Source of the DNA: Butyrivibrio sp.
Lineage (GTDB): Bacteria; Bacillota; Clostridia; Lachnospirales; Lachnospiraceae
Assembly: GCF_017635265.1 (NCBI RefSeq)
Contig: NZ_JAGBLU010000106.1
Coordinates: 1-52,632 of the forward strand
Reading direction: 5' to 3'
Length of the DNA: 52,632 nt
Shown: positions 22,906 through 27,576 of the stretch, one piece after another
Layout of the letters: every line of letters starts with the position of its first letter
Numbering within the stretch: the first letter of the stretch is position 1
The notes under the pieces: generated by a model
The model's database searches: none
What the model saw: only the letters and a program-made list of their open reading frames with translations
What the model was told of the DNA's origin: nothing
Position numbers and translations under genes: made by a program

Positions 22906-24516
22906 TTATCCATTTGTCTGATTATGATACTCATTTGGAGTAAGTCCCGTATTCTTTTTGAATACCGTTGAAAAATAGGAGAAGTTGTCAAACCCTACTT
23001 CTGTAGCGACGTCACTTATGCGAACGTCAGCCCGTGACAGAAGTTCTTTTGCCTTATCTATTCTAAAATCAGTTATATACTGCTTAAGGCTGACTCCGGT
23101 CTCTTTTTTAAACATCTTGGCCATATACTCAGGAGTAAGATAAACACTCTCCGCAATCTCATTCCTTGAGATATCTTCCTTGTAATGCTCATGAACAAAA
23201 GCCTTGGCTCTTGAAACTATAGAGTCTGATGCCTCAACCTCTGAGACATAATCAAGGGTTGTTGAAATGATATAAACCTGCCATCTCATCATATTCATGA
23301 GAGAGTCCGTTGACTGTCTGGCAAGAGACTCTGATGCTTCATTGGCAAAAAGCTGCGTCGCCTGAATCTCTTTGCTGTGAAGATAAACAAAAACAATCTG
23401 AAGCAGATCCTGCTTTATTTCTGTAAGAGCTGCTGCATCCAGTTTTTTGGCTGCTGCCAGATTTTCCATGCTAAACTTCAAAAGATTCAACAGTTCTTTC
23501 TTTTTCTTTTCATTCAGGAGAAGTCTTATCTCCTGTTGATCCAGCATATGTCCTTTTTCTGATGCAAGAACTATCTCATCATTCTCATGGAATATCTTCC
23601 CCTTCGAGGCAACATTGTTTTTATCAAGTTCCTCCATGTGGGTCTTTGCAAGATAGAGCTTCGATATGCTGCAGGGATTCCCAATATAGATTGTGATGGT
23701 ATTTTTTAGCTTTTCTCGGGCTTCCTCGAGTATTTCTGCATCGCCCACGCTCATACGCTCATTTATTATTCCCGTTTTGGAGTCTTCTACAACAACCGCA
23801 GTATATACAATTCCCTTTACGCGATAGTTTACAAATTTACTTTCAGAAATTCCGATAAATATCCTTTCGCACAGGATAGAAACCAGTTCTTTTTCATACG
23901 CACCGGCTCTGCCCGCTCCCCAGCTTTCCTCAATCTGCTCAATATTGCCGCTTGATATGATATAAAGCCTGTAATCAATTTCCGGGGCTATATTTAATCT
24001 TCTCTGCTCTATTTCCTTACTGATTACAGATTCATCTGCAACAATTCTCTGCTGCAAAACATCAAGCCAGAACATTGCCTCTACATACTCAAGATTTCCG
24101 GAATACCATTCTTCGTATATAGATGCCTTCTGACTCTCCTGCTTTTCATGTATTCTCTGGAGAGCCATATTAAGCTCTGCTTCCATTCTGTCTGCATTGA
24201 AGGGCTTTACCACATATCCGCTGGCTTTGTATTCTATGGCCTGCCTTGCATAGTCAAATTTTTCATGGCTTGTAAGGAAGATAAACTCAGTGTCAAAAGA
24301 GTTCTCCCTGGCCCACTTGATAAGGTCCAGTCCACTTCCCATAGGCATCTCGATATCACAGATAGCAAGGCTTATCTCATTCTCTTCAAAAAGCTTCTGC
24401 GCTGTTTTTATGTTGTATGCTTTATGAACTTTTTCGATATGAAATTTATCCCAGTCAACCGCATTTACTATGACATCGACCGTGGGAAAATCATCATCAA
24501 TTACGATAGCTTCCAT
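22906..24516 (-). CDS. YesN-type response regulator with AraC DNA-binding domain
   Basis: A 536-residue response regulator. The receiver domain occupies about 1-120, with the acidic pocket VIDDD, the phospho-acceptor Asp in AICDIEMP, the conserved Thr in FLTSH and the Lys in YVVKPFN. A long middle region of the YesN type follows, and the C-terminal ~100 residues are a double AraC helix-turn-helix (ISRNEIAESVYLTPEYMAKM, then ISDVATEVGFDNFSYFSTVF). I chose ATG 24516 (MEAIVIDD), which starts directly at the receiver and overlaps the kinase gene by 16 bases. A GTG at 24552 is less likely. It should activate the binding-protein gene downstream. Confidence 0.92.
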   Translation of the reverse strand: MEAIVIDDDFPTVDVIVNAVDWDKFHIEKVHKAYNIKTAQKLFEENEISLAICDIEMPMGSGLDLIKWARENSFDTEFIFLTSHEKFDYARQAIEYKASGYVVKPFNADRMEAELNMALQRIHEKQESQKASIYEEWYSGNLEYVEAMFWLDVLQQRIVADESVISKEIEQRRLNIAPEIDYRLYIISSGNIEQIEESWGAGRAGAYEKELVSILCERIFIGISESKFVNYRVKGIVYTAVVVEDSKTGIINERMSVGDAEILEEAREKLKNTITIYIGNPCSISKLYLAKTHMEELDKNNVASKGKIFHENDEIVLASEKGHMLDQQEIRLLLNEKKKKELLNLLKFSMENLAAAKKLDAAALTEIKQDLLQIVFVYLHSKEIQATQLFANEASESLARQSTDSLMNMMRWQVYIISTTLDYVSEVEASDSIVSRAKAFVHEHYKEDISRNEIAESVYLTPEYMAKMFKKETGVSLKQYITDFRIDKAKELLSRADVRISDVATEVGFDNFSYFSTVFKKNTGLTPNEYHNQTNG

Positions 24517-26237
24517 ACACTGCTCTGCCTCTTTACTCTCTTTGGTATCCACATATCAACTTTACTGCCGTGAGGCTCTTTATTAGAAAATTCTATCAGG
24601 TCATCTCTTCTGTACATCAGACTTAAAGTCTTTTTGAGATTCCAAAGGCCTATTCCATGTCCATTTTCTTTTACTGCCACATTACCATTTTTTACCTGCA
24701 AAAGAAATTCCGAAGGGAACCCAACTCCATCATCCTCCACGACAATATGGCACATCTCCTCACCATTTCGCTCTTCAAGCTTACAGGAAATAAGTATTGA
24801 AGTAAGGTTATCCACAGAAACAGTGTGTTTATAAATGTTTTCCAGAATTGTATGAATAAGAAGCTGTGGAACAGGATAATCGAGTATTTTTTCATCAATG
24901 TCAATAAAATCAAATACGCATCCCGGATACAGAATTTCCTGCATCGCAATATAGTCTTTTATATGCTCTATCTCTTCCGTCAAAGGAACAGTGTGCATTC
25001 CGGATTTAAAAAGATATCTCACGTTTCTGGAGAGTCTTTCTATGTAATCACGTATTTCCTCATTCCGATCCTGATAAGACATACTGTGTATCGTAGTAAG
25101 CGCATTTAAGAAAAAGTGAGGTTTTATCTGAAGCTGTACGTATTTTAGCGTTGCTTCATCAAACTGAATTCTCTCCTCATAAGAGCGCATTCGCAGATTG
25201 ACAATTGTGTCTATCATCTGATTAAAGCTGTTATTTATCTGTCTGAACTCAACTGTATCTGCTTTGTTGGGAAGTCTAAGCGACTGTTCTCCATTTTCTA
25301 TCTTTTTCATGGCAATAAGTAATTCCCGCAACGGGGCATATACCACTCGCCTTGTATAAAGAGTTATGACACCCAGCAAAACGATCGCCGAAACAACAAG
25401 CAGTATTATAATAAGCTGTATCGTTTGATAGTTTCCATATACTCTGTGTTTTTCCAATGCCACAAAAATACCAAAATCCCCTTTTGCTGATGGTCCACCA
25501 AGTACAAGATATTTTCCGTCATCAGACCATGAAGCACCCGAACTCACTTTAAAGCTAAGATCTGAGCTTGTGATCTCTCCATTATCCGTCTGAACAATAA
25601 TGTCGTTATTAATATCAGTTATCGCGTAGCATACTGAATCATTAGTTATGAGTCTTTCCAAAATTCCTGATATATTTACCAGTGCCCCAAGCATACGATT
25701 TTTATTTTTATAAAGGCGTAGAAGATATTTCTTTTCTCCGATCTGTCTGTATATCCATTTAGATGGCATGTTTCCTGGATACTCCAGGATCATTTCTTCT
25801 ATGCTCTGACGGATCATTACAGTATCGTTATAATTTAGGCCGTTTGCAGTCTTAGCTATATAGTTATTTCCAATAAGATCATAGAAAAAAATAGTCTCAA
25901 CGTCAGTACTACTACCTGCTATGTTCTTCAGAGTCTGTAACATGTTTTGTTGTGCTATAGCCTTCTGGACATCCGTGCCATTTTTAAAAGCAGAAATATC
26001 AGCATTATCCTGCAGAACAACAGCAAGAGCCTGTTCATTAGCCTTTAAAACTTCTTCTATTTCATAATCCGAGATTTCTTTTGCCTGTGATAGCGTAGCC
26101 CCCGCAGCGCTCTCCAATGTGGTCCTGGTATTCCACCATATGGCTGACAAAATGATTATCATCAGGATCATGTAGAATAGAACCGCAGATGCAATTGTAC
26201 GTATAAAAGAGTTATTCTTTTCTTTTAGCTTTTGCAT
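24501..26237 (-). CDS. YesM-type sensor histidine kinase
   Basis: A 578-residue membrane kinase. The first membrane helix spans about 13-33 and the second about 272-295, enclosing an extracellular sensor region of roughly 240 residues. A HAMP linker follows, then the His_kinase-type H-box QIKPHFFLNALTTIHS and an ATPase domain with ILENIYKH (N box), VEDDGVGFP (G1) and HGIGLWNLKK (G2). Such kinases detect extracellular sugars, often with a binding protein, and phosphorylate YesN. Its start overlaps the HipA-like gene by 13 bases with a weak AAAGG site six bases upstream, so expression is tied to that gene. Confidence 0.93.
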   Translation of the reverse strand: MQKLKEKNNSFIRTIASAVLFYMILMIIILSAIWWNTRTTLESAAGATLSQAKEISDYEIEEVLKANEQALAVVLQDNADISAFKNGTDVQKAIAQQNMLQTLKNIAGSSTDVETIFFYDLIGNNYIAKTANGLNYNDTVMIRQSIEEMILEYPGNMPSKWIYRQIGEKKYLLRLYKNKNRMLGALVNISGILERLITNDSVCYAITDINNDIIVQTDNGEITSSDLSFKVSSGASWSDDGKYLVLGGPSAKGDFGIFVALEKHRVYGNYQTIQLIIILLVVSAIVLLGVITLYTRRVVYAPLRELLIAMKKIENGEQSLRLPNKADTVEFRQINNSFNQMIDTIVNLRMRSYEERIQFDEATLKYVQLQIKPHFFLNALTTIHSMSYQDRNEEIRDYIERLSRNVRYLFKSGMHTVPLTEEIEHIKDYIAMQEILYPGCVFDFIDIDEKILDYPVPQLLIHTILENIYKHTVSVDNLTSILISCKLEERNGEEMCHIVVEDDGVGFPSEFLLQVKNGNVAVKENGHGIGLWNLKKTLSLMYRRDDLIEFSNKEPHGSKVDMWIPKRVKRQSSVWKLS

Positions 26238-26986
26238 AATAAACCTTTGTACCTGTCTAATTGGTATTTCAGAACCGTTAGCGCCCTGGATTGTGGTTCT
26301 TCTCTTAATGCCGCCTCTAACTTATCATAATCGATTCTCAATGTCACACCTGCCAGCTGTGCCTGCATTTCCAGACTGGATGAGAAGGGCTGCCCATATG
26401 CCGATTCAATATTCTCATCAATAGAATTATCCATTGGAAAGCGTGTAAGATCACTAAGAAGACCAGCTCCATTGTCAAACACAGGTGCTTCAAAACATTC
26501 TTCTGTTTCTGTATCCACAATTATTCCAAGATTATTAAAATGCCTGTCGGTATTCAATATAAGCATATCAAATGCAAGTATTTTTGACAGATAATCACTG
26601 CAATCAAATCCTGTGTAATCACGTATAAATTCTTTTATAAAATTTATCCTATCCTGAGGATCATCCATAATGATAATGCGCTCAGACAGGTTCCCTCCAA
26701 AATACATATCATACAATCTTTGAAAACTCAAAAAAGAACATCCTTCTTTTAAAAAATTCTGAGATCTGCATCCTTTTTTCCCATTGATAGTACATTCTTC
26801 GTATCTGACAAAATAATCCACATTCGAACAGGAAAGAACAAGCGATGCCAACTGCTCAGTTTTTCCTTCATAACCTGCTCTGTTCTCTTTATACCAAAAT
26901 CCCTTATCAAAATATTTTGGCTGAGTTCCCTTTGAACTTCCTGCAACCATCACCATCGCACGAGGGCTTAACTTGTAGTCTCTCAT
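26225..26986 (-). CDS. Short HipA-like kinase
   Basis: A 253-residue protein with the catalytic core of HipA serine/threonine kinases. The glycine-rich nucleotide loop is AGSSKGTQPKYF (about 15-26), the catalytic loop LNTDRHFNNLG has Asp147 and Asn152, and the metal-binding motif is VFDNG with Asp171. Full HipA is about 440 residues; the N-terminal subdomain 1 is missing here. The ATGA overlap with the XRE gene argues for the start at 26986, not 27007. HipA family kinases phosphorylate tRNA synthetases or other targets and are held by a HipB-like partner. The core motifs are intact, so activity is plausible; the target is unknown. Confidence 0.82.
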   Translation of the reverse strand: MRDYKLSPRAMVMVAGSSKGTQPKYFDKGFWYKENRAGYEGKTEQLASLVLSCSNVDYFVRYEECTINGKKGCRSQNFLKEGCSFLSFQRLYDMYFGGNLSERIIIMDDPQDRINFIKEFIRDYTGFDCSDYLSKILAFDMLILNTDRHFNNLGIIVDTETEECFEAPVFDNGAGLLSDLTRFPMDNSIDENIESAYGQPFSSSLEMQAQLAGVTLRIDYDKLEAALREEPQSRALTVLKYQLDRYKGLLCKS

Positions 26987-27528
26987 ATCAATTTGACATC
27001 CTTCCATTTTATTTTTTCATCGTGAAGCTTAATCCAAAAAGTATCTTCATAAGTCACTCCGTGAGACAGTTTAATAAATTCATAAGGATTATTGGATGTA
27101 AGATTAGCTTTTTCTAAAATTCTATCAAGGTCCGCCCGTCCATCCTCGTAGCATCTGTCCTTCAAAAAAGAATAAAAGCGCTCTAAATTAAGCCTGTTTC
27201 CGGAAAATGGTTGTCCTATACCATCTTTCTTTATTTTGTTGAATTTAATATTTTTTCTACTTCTATCAAGTTCCACTATACACACTATTTCATCTCGATC
27301 CATAACATCATATACTGTATAATCTACCGGAGTCAGGTGTATATCCATGCCAAGCACATCCAATATAGAAAGAAGTGTATCTAAAGAAGGCATCTGCTTT
27401 CCCAATTCAAATCTACTATAATTTGACTGTTTAATACCGCATAGCTTCGCCACCTGCGCTTGAGTCATTCCAAGAGCTTTTCTTCTTTTCTTTATTTTTA
27501 TGATTATTTCTTCAACATTTTGTTTCAT
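26983..27528 (-). CDS. XRE regulator with C-terminal piece of the HipA N-lobe
   Basis: A 181-residue protein. Residues about 10-65 form an XRE/Cro helix-turn-helix (KALGMTQAQVAKLCGIKQSN), as in the HipB antitoxin. The remaining ~115 residues are far more than HipB has. The end, KLSHGVTYEDTFWIKLHDEK followed by IKWKDVKL, resembles the stretch that precedes the nucleotide loop in intact HipA-like kinases. The kinase gene follows with an ATGA overlap, so the two proteins would be made together. It probably represses the promoter at 27548-27576 and restrains the kinase. The N-lobe resemblance is my judgement from pattern, not a search. Confidence 0.8.
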   Translation of the reverse strand: MKQNVEEIIIKIKKRRKALGMTQAQVAKLCGIKQSNYSRFELGKQMPSLDTLLSILDVLGMDIHLTPVDYTVYDVMDRDEIVCIVELDRSRKNIKFNKIKKDGIGQPFSGNRLNLERFYSFLKDRCYEDGRADLDRILEKANLTSNNPYEFIKLSHGVTYEDTFWIKLHDEKIKWKDVKLI

Positions 27529-27547: not shown

Positions 27548-27576
27548 AGAATATATCATTTTTGATATATTATCAA
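27548..27576 (-). promoter_or_regulatory. Promoter with palindromic operator before the XRE-HipA genes
   Basis: The minus strand has -35 TTGATA (27571-27576), a 17-base spacer and -10 TATTCT (27548-27553). The palindrome ATATATCA-N4-TGATATAT (27551-27570) fills the spacer exactly and overlaps the -10. A dimeric XRE protein bound there would block polymerase, which is the usual autoregulation of HipB-type antitoxins. Confidence 0.72.

What the first reader, a model, noticed from the sequence alone, without database searches (positions are those of the whole stretch)
24501..27528. HipA-like kinase split so that its N-lobe start sits on the XRE partner, and fused into a YesMN operon
Seen: the kinase is 253 residues, begins just before the nucleotide loop and keeps NTDRH and DNG motifs; the XRE protein has a ~115-residue extension ending in DTFWIK...WKDV, which looks like the missing N-lobe edge. 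ATGA overlap joins them, and the kinase gene overlaps the YesM gene by 13 bases. Known: in HipBST the HipA N-subdomain is a separate antitoxin protein, HipS. Inferred: here the HipS-like part is fused to HipB, and the module is tied to a sugar-sensing two-component system.
Basis: partly seen in the sequence, partly recalled or inferred. Interest (0 to 1): 0.75.

Follow-up and report, generated by a model that had tools for sequence, protein, structure and literature searches.

The report
Kinase cap fused to its repressor
A Butyrivibrio-group bacterium carries a two-gene, toxin-antitoxin-like unit in which a small HipA-type kinase lacks its N-terminal cap and the cap sits on the DNA-binding protein encoded just upstream; many related bacteria repeat this design with different DNA-binding heads, while the neighbouring sensor genes look like a local accident.

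Summary
A 181-aa XRE protein and a 253-aa HipA-type kinase overlap at ATGA; the kinase overlaps YesM by 13 bp. The XRE C-domain (residues 69-181) aligns with residues 2-113 of single-chain kinases of the same genus (hhalign 97.9%, E 5e-13), and the kinase with residues 136-332 (99.3%, E 2e-20). The pair is one kinase in two pieces, with the cap fused to an HTH protein. It is no recent frameshift: 76 of the 80 best kinase relatives have an adjacent cap partner. Other caps carry MqsA-like, resolvase-type, probably AbrB or RHH heads, or none; cap and kinase co-vary (r 0.90). A palindrome upstream of the XRE gene, unique in the held genome, recurs at 5 of 5 examined orthologue loci. The YesMN link is not supported: none of 12 YesM orthologues in the genus shows the module in the fetched flanks, and B. 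proteoclasticus P18 keeps the module but lost YesMN by deletion. No sequence similarity of the cap to HipS, HipA or any Pfam family was found; 'HipS-like' rests on position and predicted fold order. Most likely a HipBST-like module with HipB and HipS fused: a new variant of a known kind. Toxicity, inhibition and target are untested.

The parts
27550..27571 (.). Palindrome AATATATCA-N4-TGATATATT upstream of the XRE gene; candidate operator (a place between -35 and -10 was read by eye only)
   Evidence: exact core TATATCA-N4-TGATATA occurs once in the held 4.15-Mb genome, 88% complete; 0.07 expected in the window at up to 2 mismatches, 7 of 100 shuffles reach one; present at 5 of 5 examined orthologue loci including the window, one with a mismatch
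26983..27528 (-). XRE-cap fusion protein, 181 aa (proposed antitoxin and autorepressor)
27331..27528 (-). HTH_3/XRE head, residues 1-66
   Evidence: Pfam HTH_3 E 5.7e-16; Foldseek ranks 2 and 3 of the model are HipB structures 8ezt and 4pu7, rank 1 a designed protein
26986..27324 (-). Cap (HipS-like) domain, residues 69-181
   Evidence: hhalign to residues 2-113 of single-chain kinases, 97.9% E 5e-13 and 98.2% E 4.9e-14; predicted E-E-E-H-H-H-E
26225..26986 (-). HipA-type kinase without the cap, 253 aa
26915..26938 (-). Gly-rich loop SSKGTQPK (kinase residues 17-24); Ser/Thr at residue 17
   Evidence: residue 17 Ser or Thr and G20 in 66 of 66 rows; Q22 in 62, K24 in 65
26540..26548 (-). Catalytic DRH (kinase residues 147-149)
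   Evidence: invariant in 66 rows
26468..26476 (-). Mg-binding DNG (kinase residues 171-173)
   Evidence: D171 and G173 in 66 of 66 rows
26983..26986 (-). ATGA stop/start overlap of XRE and kinase genes
26225..26237 (-). 13-bp overlap of the kinase gene with YesM
22906..26237 (-). YesM and YesN; neighbours, not part of the module

Best explanation
A two-gene, toxin-antitoxin-like module in which HipB and a HipS-like cap are one protein. Shown by sequence: the kinase core is intact but lacks the N-terminal cap of its single-chain relatives; that cap is the C-domain of the HTH protein; a palindrome conserved with this XRE type lies upstream of the pair. Inferred: the cap docks on the kinase beside the Gly-rich loop and holds it inactive, as HipS does to HipT, while the HTH carries the complex to the palindrome and represses the operon. 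When the XRE-cap protein is lost or displaced, promoter and kinase are released together and the kinase phosphorylates an unknown target (aminoacyl-tRNA synthetases are the precedent), stopping growth. YesMN was caught downstream in this lineage and may share the transcript.
For: Collinear, non-overlapping profile matches of cap and kinase to one single-chain family. 76 of 80 relatives keep the pair. Cap and kinase distances correlate, r 0.90 over 62 pairs, permutation maximum 0.105. G20, K33, E44, D140, D147, H149, N152, P168, D171 and G173 in 66 of 66 rows; Ser/Thr at the place of HipA Ser150 in 66 of 66. Kinase profile matches HipA (79.6%) and CtkA (E 1.2e-8); fold nearest CtkA, then HipA and HipT(Lp). 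HTH resembles HipB. Palindrome at 5 of 5 examined orthologue loci, unique in the held genome. 20 of 49 headed partners have an upstream palindrome against 1.7 expected, headless 0 of 26. dN/dS window to P18: XRE 0.145, kinase 0.247. In L163, L135 and L033 the kinase is broken and the partner intact. HipS inhibits HipT: PMC10627512 sections 5-6.
Against: No sequence link of the cap to HipA, PDB chains or Pfam; the HipA profile was thin (5 sequences). No conserved counterpart of HipS Trp65: around it (residues 122-132) Trp reaches at most 9 of 62. 4 of 80 kinases have no detectable partner yet keep the catalytic residues, odd for a lethal toxin. dN/dS rests on 3N/5S and 7N/7S, and all 3 XRE replacements lie in the HTH (ratio 0.77 there). 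After dereplication the palindrome contrast is 5 of 17 against 0 of 8, p 0.12. No complex was modelled; toxicity, inhibition and target are untested.
Confidence: 0.6

Rival explanations
1. Split holoenzyme: the cap is a subunit needed for kinase activity or substrate choice, and the pair is a regulatory kinase that controls its own promoter rather than a toxin-antitoxin system.
For: Single-chain relatives carry the same cap in cis, so the cap is compatible with a working kinase. Cap and kinase evolve together. 26 of 76 partners have no head, so a cap without DNA binding is common.
Against: 4 of 80 kinases stand alone with intact catalytic residues. In HipBST the same piece inhibits (PMC10627512). 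Partner intact with kinase broken in L163, L135 and L033 fits an antitoxin better.
Confidence: 0.22
2. Anti-phage abortive-infection module: as in the best explanation, but the trigger is a phage product that displaces the XRE-cap protein (not exclusive of the best explanation).
For: The kinase matches PADLOC phage-defence-candidate PDC-M03A (E 8.8e-14); the window's cap matches PDC-M03B only weakly (E 0.032). 18 of 77 partners match one PDC-M03B model at E<=0.01. A HipA-type kinase with a DUF3037 partner protects against phage (PMC13092281, PMC12548924, passages). Patchy spread and some plasmid and phage copies.
Against: The PDC label is a candidate. I did not look for defence genes around the locus. 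Only 6 phage records, 5 viral contigs and 14 plasmid records carried relatives, all under 60% identity.
Confidence: 0.3
3. Part of a sugar-sensing circuit: the kinase or XRE-cap protein acts with YesMN.
For: 13-bp overlap and same strand, so shared transcription is likely.
Against: None of 12 other genus YesM loci shows cap or kinase in the fetched flanks, about 1.5 kb upstream in 10 of them and about 0.3 kb in L152 and L156. None of the 80 kinase loci has a YesM or YesN homologue (E<1e-20) on the kinase strand in the stored flanks, which fall short of full length in 33 of 80; L036 has only a solute-binding-protein remnant. P18 keeps the pair but lost YesM and YesN by deletion.
Confidence: 0.05
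4. Recent frameshift or split of a single-chain kinase gene.
For: Single-chain homologues exist in the same genome and genus.
Against: They form a separate, distant family; 11 of 18 examined have an XRE-like gene (by eye) directly upstream. The split form occurs in 76 of 80 relatives and at four further genus loci with this XRE type: P18, G156, G189, G198.
Confidence: 0.01

Closest known systems
hipBST (E. coli O127; Legionella)
   Same: Kinase core without N-subdomain 1; cap supplied by another protein; separate HTH protein in the operon (PMC10627512 sections 5-6 and passages; PMC8262856 sections and passages).
   Different: HTH and cap are one protein here; two genes, not three; no detectable sequence similarity of the cap; no conserved Trp65 equivalent seen.
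hipIN / hipJS (Gerdes 2021, PMC8262856) and PADLOC PDC-M03 (that PDC-M03 corresponds to hipIN is my inference)
   Same: Small kinase plus a partner with a HipS-like domain; PDC-M03A matches the kinase, PDC-M03B weakly the cap.
   Different: In hipIN and hipJS the partner gene is downstream and HipN is HipS-HIRAN; here the partner is upstream and HTH-cap, and no HIRAN is among the 25 of 28 Pfam families shown for 77 partners.
hipRG (Gerdes 2021, PMC8262856)
   Same: HTH partner gene and a kinase without N-subdomain 1.
   Different: HipR is described as Stl-like and HipG lacks a conserved Ser/Thr by the Gly-rich loop; here Ser/Thr is present in 66 of 66. Its supplementary sequence table could not be read, so shared members are not excluded.
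Single-chain kinases of the same genus (L165-L194)
   Same: Cap and kinase homologous to the two pieces here; an XRE-like gene upstream in 11 of 18 examined, by eye.
   Different: The gene border lies before the cap, not after it.
HipAD / DS-6 / PDC-M66
   Same: HipA-type kinase with a partner protein that restrains it (PMC13092281, PMC12548924, passages).
   Different: Partner is DUF3037/DUF1829; PDC-M66A matched this kinase only at E 0.022.
CtkA (Helicobacter pylori)
   Same: Nearest solved fold of the kinase, TMq 0.66.
   Different: 16% identity in that match; only its name and scores were seen.

Membership tests
HipA-type Ser/Thr kinase | Gly-rich loop, ATP Lys, catalytic Asp/Asn and Mg Asp conserved | tested here: met
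   G20, K33, D147, N152, D171 in 66 of 66 rows; correspondence with E. coli HipA read by me from alignment A7
HipA-type Ser/Thr kinase | Match to Pfam HipA_C | tested here: inconclusive
   E 0.01, 15.9 bits, cut-off 30.5; 27 of 28 family members match at E<=0.1
HipA-type Ser/Thr kinase | Fold like HipA/CtkA | tested here: met
   Model pLDDT 95.2; CtkA E 2.1e-9 TMq 0.66, HipA 3dnu E 4e-4 TMq 0.45
hipBST | Three separate genes B, S, T | tested here: not met
   Two genes, HTH and cap fused
hipBST | Kinase lacks N-subdomain 1, cap supplied in trans | tested here: met
   hhalign to single-chain relatives; that the cap acts in trans is inferred
hipBST | HipS sequence similarity to HipA N-subdomain 1 | tested here: not met
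   hhalign 0.4% against a 5-sequence HipA profile; no Couple_hipA among all 17 Pfam families hit by 53 caps at E<=0.5
hipBST | HipS fold: strands, three helices, last strand | tested here: inconclusive
   Predicted E70-77 E80-88 E94-98 H115-123 H134-140 H148-155 E164-168 against a text description with four N-terminal strands; no superposition was available
hipBST | Trp65 wedge of HipS | tested here: inconclusive
   Trp at most 9 of 62 at any of residues 122-132; which column corresponds to Trp65 is my reading
hipBST | Kinase toxic, neutralised by the cap protein; target TrpS | not testable with these tools
   Needs expression and kinase assays
hipIN / PDC-M03 | Kinase of the PDC-M03A family | tested here: met
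   E 8.8e-14, 49.7 bits; the library gives no cut-off
hipIN / PDC-M03 | Partner HipS-like plus HIRAN, encoded downstream | tested here: not met
   Partner upstream with HTH head; PDC-M03B only E 0.032; no HIRAN in the window protein
hipRG | No conserved Ser/Thr beside the Gly-rich loop | tested here: not met
   Ser/Thr in 66 of 66
hipRG | HipR C-domain Stl-like | not tested
   No Stl profile was compared
Autoregulated TA operon | Operator for the HTH protein at its own promoter | tested here: inconclusive
   Conserved palindrome, unique in the held genome; DNA binding not assayed

The most novel reading that the evidence does not exclude
The cap is a portable kinase-control domain served by many DNA-binding heads: in one cap-kinase family about ten different heads (three or more XRE types, MqsA-like, resolvase-type, RHH-like, AbrB-like) or none have been adopted, each mostly once per clade and several with their own operator, so that a promoter-bound repressor physically carries the kinase's missing lobe, and kinase release and gene induction are one event.
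Probability: 0.4. Interest if true: 0.75.

Novelty: new variant of a known kind. Interest (0 to 1): 0.57.

Why it matters
It shows that the border between repressor and kinase in Hip systems can move, placing the cap on the repressor, and that one cap-kinase pair is served by many DNA-binding heads. That makes the question of what HipS does (antitoxin, subunit or anchor) testable in a simple two-protein system, in a common and, as far as my searches went, unnamed family found mainly in Clostridia, whose cap matches no Pfam family.

Tried and rejected
Functional link to YesMN: rejected as a general feature. Recent frameshift: rejected. Three-gene hipBST layout for headless partners: not found as a rule; of 26 headless partners only L041 showed, by eye, an apparent DNA-binding gene directly upstream (recombinase-like, 4-bp overlap). 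Sequence link of the cap to HipA, PDB chains or Pfam: none. The 50 listed Foldseek rows of the partner were filled by its HTH, so they give no verdict on the cap. PHROGs gave HTH regulators and, for the kinase, families of unknown function. Viral contigs: 5 relatives.

Papers: in the listings of searches, and in the sections and passages I read, I met no HTH-HipS fusion. Only open-licence PMC was searched; supplements and most subscription papers were out of reach; the Payne 2024 preprint on phage-defence candidates was seen only as a reference.

Dropped rows: A3 and the tree use 65 of 80 loci plus the window (10 dropped at 89-99% identity to a kept row, 5 with an incomplete profile match). 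The fold alignment A4 uses 42 of 77 partners, A6 53 of 77. The cap-kinase correlation uses 62 pairs. L076 was dropped from the palindrome count (contig end). Head classes were assigned by eye; AbrB-, RHH- and coil-type names come from no model hit. Two 'headless' partners, L092 and L105, lie inside headed clades and may be truncated genes.
Full report
WHAT IS THERE. On the minus strand lie an XRE gene (27528-26983, 181 aa), a HipA-type kinase gene (26986-26225, 253 aa) joined to it by ATGA, and YesM, which starts 13 bp inside the kinase gene. The window is a whole contig (C83) of a 4.15-Mb, 88% complete genome. Its nearest named relative here is Butyrivibrio proteoclasticus P18, with 98% XRE and 97% kinase identity. 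A paralogous pair (180-aa HTH protein plus 268-aa kinase) lies elsewhere in the same genome.

THE CAP. Pfam sees only an HTH in the XRE protein and nothing in the cap alone. I built alignments of kinases (A3), partners (A4), caps (A6) and a single-chain kinase family (A5; 28 of 79 genus genomes match its query at E<=1e-15). hhalign places XRE residues 69-181 on single-chain residues 2-113 (97.9%, E 5e-13; cap-only alignment 98.2%, E 4.9e-14). It places the short kinase on residues 136-332 of the same chain (99.3%, E 1.8e-20). The two genes thus correspond to successive parts of one protein, with an HTH in front. AlphaFold gives a four-helix HTH (H2-18, H23-30, H34-41, H49-58), then E70-77 E80-88 E94-98 H115-123 H134-140 H148-155 E164-168 (pLDDT 90.6, pTM 0.62). 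Published HipS has four strands, three helices and a fifth strand (PMC10627512 section 5). Against this, the cap does not match a five-sequence HipA profile (0.4%), Couple_hipA or any PDB chain by profile, and I see no conserved counterpart of HipS Trp65. I call it HipS-like by position and predicted topology only.

THE KINASE. Model pLDDT 95.2, pTM 0.92. Foldseek: CtkA E 2.1e-9, then HipA 3dnu and HipT(Lp). By profile it matches CtkA (E 1.2e-8) and HipT(Lp) (E 0.013) in the PDB and the HipA profile (79.6%). G20, K33, E44, D140, D147, H149, N152, P168, D171 and G173 are invariant in 66 of 66 rows; Q22 is kept in 62 and K24 in 65; residue 17, at the place of HipA Ser150, is Ser (47) or Thr (19). 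It should be an active kinase.

THE FAMILY. 30 of 150 genomes drawn from the same family at E<=1e-10 and 34 of 79 in the genus at E<=1e-20 have a match, the window's own genome included in both. 76 of these have an adjacent upstream cap partner; L047, L050, L052 and L055 show none. By my own sorting of the sequence before the cap, the 76 partners are: no head (under 40 aa) 26, resolvase-type HTH 20, MqsA-like XRE 11, second XRE type 8, coiled-coil plus HTH 2, another HTH 2, AbrB-like 2, coiled coil 2, window-type XRE 1, third XRE type 1, RHH-like 1. Pfam supports the larger classes: HTH_3 in 25, HTH_7 in 22, MqsA in 12 of 77. On the kinase tree the head state changes at least 12 times; 10 is the minimum for 11 states, so head types are mostly clade-specific rather than freely shuffled. 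Head/no-head changes at least 7 times. Cap and kinase distances correlate at r 0.90 over 62 pairs, permutation maximum 0.105: cap and kinase travel together while heads differ between clades.

OPERATOR. AATATATCA-N4-TGATATATT lies 22-43 nt before the XRE start. Its core occurs once exactly in the held genome; four further sites with one mismatch give 5 against 3 for the control pattern. It recurs upstream of the orthologues in P18, G156 (one mismatch), G189 and G198, whose upstream DNA, except P18's, looks otherwise unrelated by eye. Across the family, palindromes with arms of 8 or more within 100 nt upstream occur in 20 of 49 headed partners (1.7 expected) and 0 of 26 headless ones (0.5 expected; Fisher p 3.5e-5). 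After dereplication the figures are 5 of 17 and 0 of 8, p 0.12. Motifs differ between head types and also within the resolvase type.

YESMN. 13 of 79 genus genomes have this YesM at E<=1e-100, including the window's own. None of the other 12 shows cap or kinase in the fetched flanks. None of the 80 kinase loci has YesM or YesN on the kinase strand within the stored flanks. P18 has the same transporter-transporter-XRE-kinase order, but its next ORF is the first 12 codons of YesM running into the solute-binding-protein gene. The junction corresponds to window 26203 and 21557 with a 5-bp overlap, a loss of about 4.6 kb. The pair therefore persists without YesMN. dN/dS between window and P18 is 0.145 (XRE, 3N/5S) and 0.247 (kinase, 7N/7S); the cap has 0N/4S and the HTH 3N/1S.

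MECHANISM. The best-supported reading is a HipBST-like toxin-antitoxin module with HipB and the cap fused: the cap restrains the kinase and the head represses the operon. Restraint, toxicity and target are inferred. Broken kinases beside intact partners (L163, L135, L033) fit this; orphan kinases (4 of 80) do not. A split holoenzyme is the main rival. A phage-defence role is possible: the kinase matches PADLOC PDC-M03A at 8.8e-14, and a HipA-type kinase with a DUF3037 partner defends against phage (PMC13092281 and PMC12548924, passages).

AGAINST THE LITERATURE. Gerdes 2021 (PMC8262856; abstract, sections 4, 5, 10, 11, 16 and passages) describes ten Hip gene organisations; in what I read, none is an HTH-cap fusion upstream of a core kinase. 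The searches named in Tried and rejected listed no such description. I file it as a new variant of a known kind.

Noticed in passing
G000 contig C150, loci L004 and L198: Same genome: a 270-aa kinase, a 272-aa partner whose residues 71-113 weakly match PDC-M03B (E 0.00093), and a 432-aa HipA lie in tandem on one strand.
   Followed up: partly
L002, L003, L005, L006 (own genome): Four more Hip-type kinases in this one genome: a second split pair (L002) and three single-chain-sized forms of 392-413 aa, L006 with an XRE-like gene upstream.
   Followed up: partly
L163 (G156), L135 (G198), L033, L008: Kinase truncated (L163), internally deleted (L135) or interrupted by a stop (L033, L008); the cap partner is intact in the first three and not found in L008.
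   Followed up: partly
L047, L050, L052, L055: Kinases of the same family without a detectable cap partner but with the invariant catalytic residues.
   Followed up: no
L041:4022-4672: A recombinase-like gene (216 aa, read by eye) overlaps a headless cap gene by 4 bp, giving a recombinase-cap-kinase order reminiscent of hipMP.
   Followed up: no
L034: Reversed order: kinase first, 120-aa headless cap second, 16-bp overlap.
   Followed up: no
L108, L115, L051: Cap heads that look, by eye, like AbrB swapped-hairpin (L108, L115) and ribbon-helix-helix (L051) DNA-binding domains.
   Followed up: no
L162:6040-6342: P18 has a 100-aa ORF that begins as YesM and continues in the solute-binding-protein gene, left by the deletion.
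   Followed up: yes
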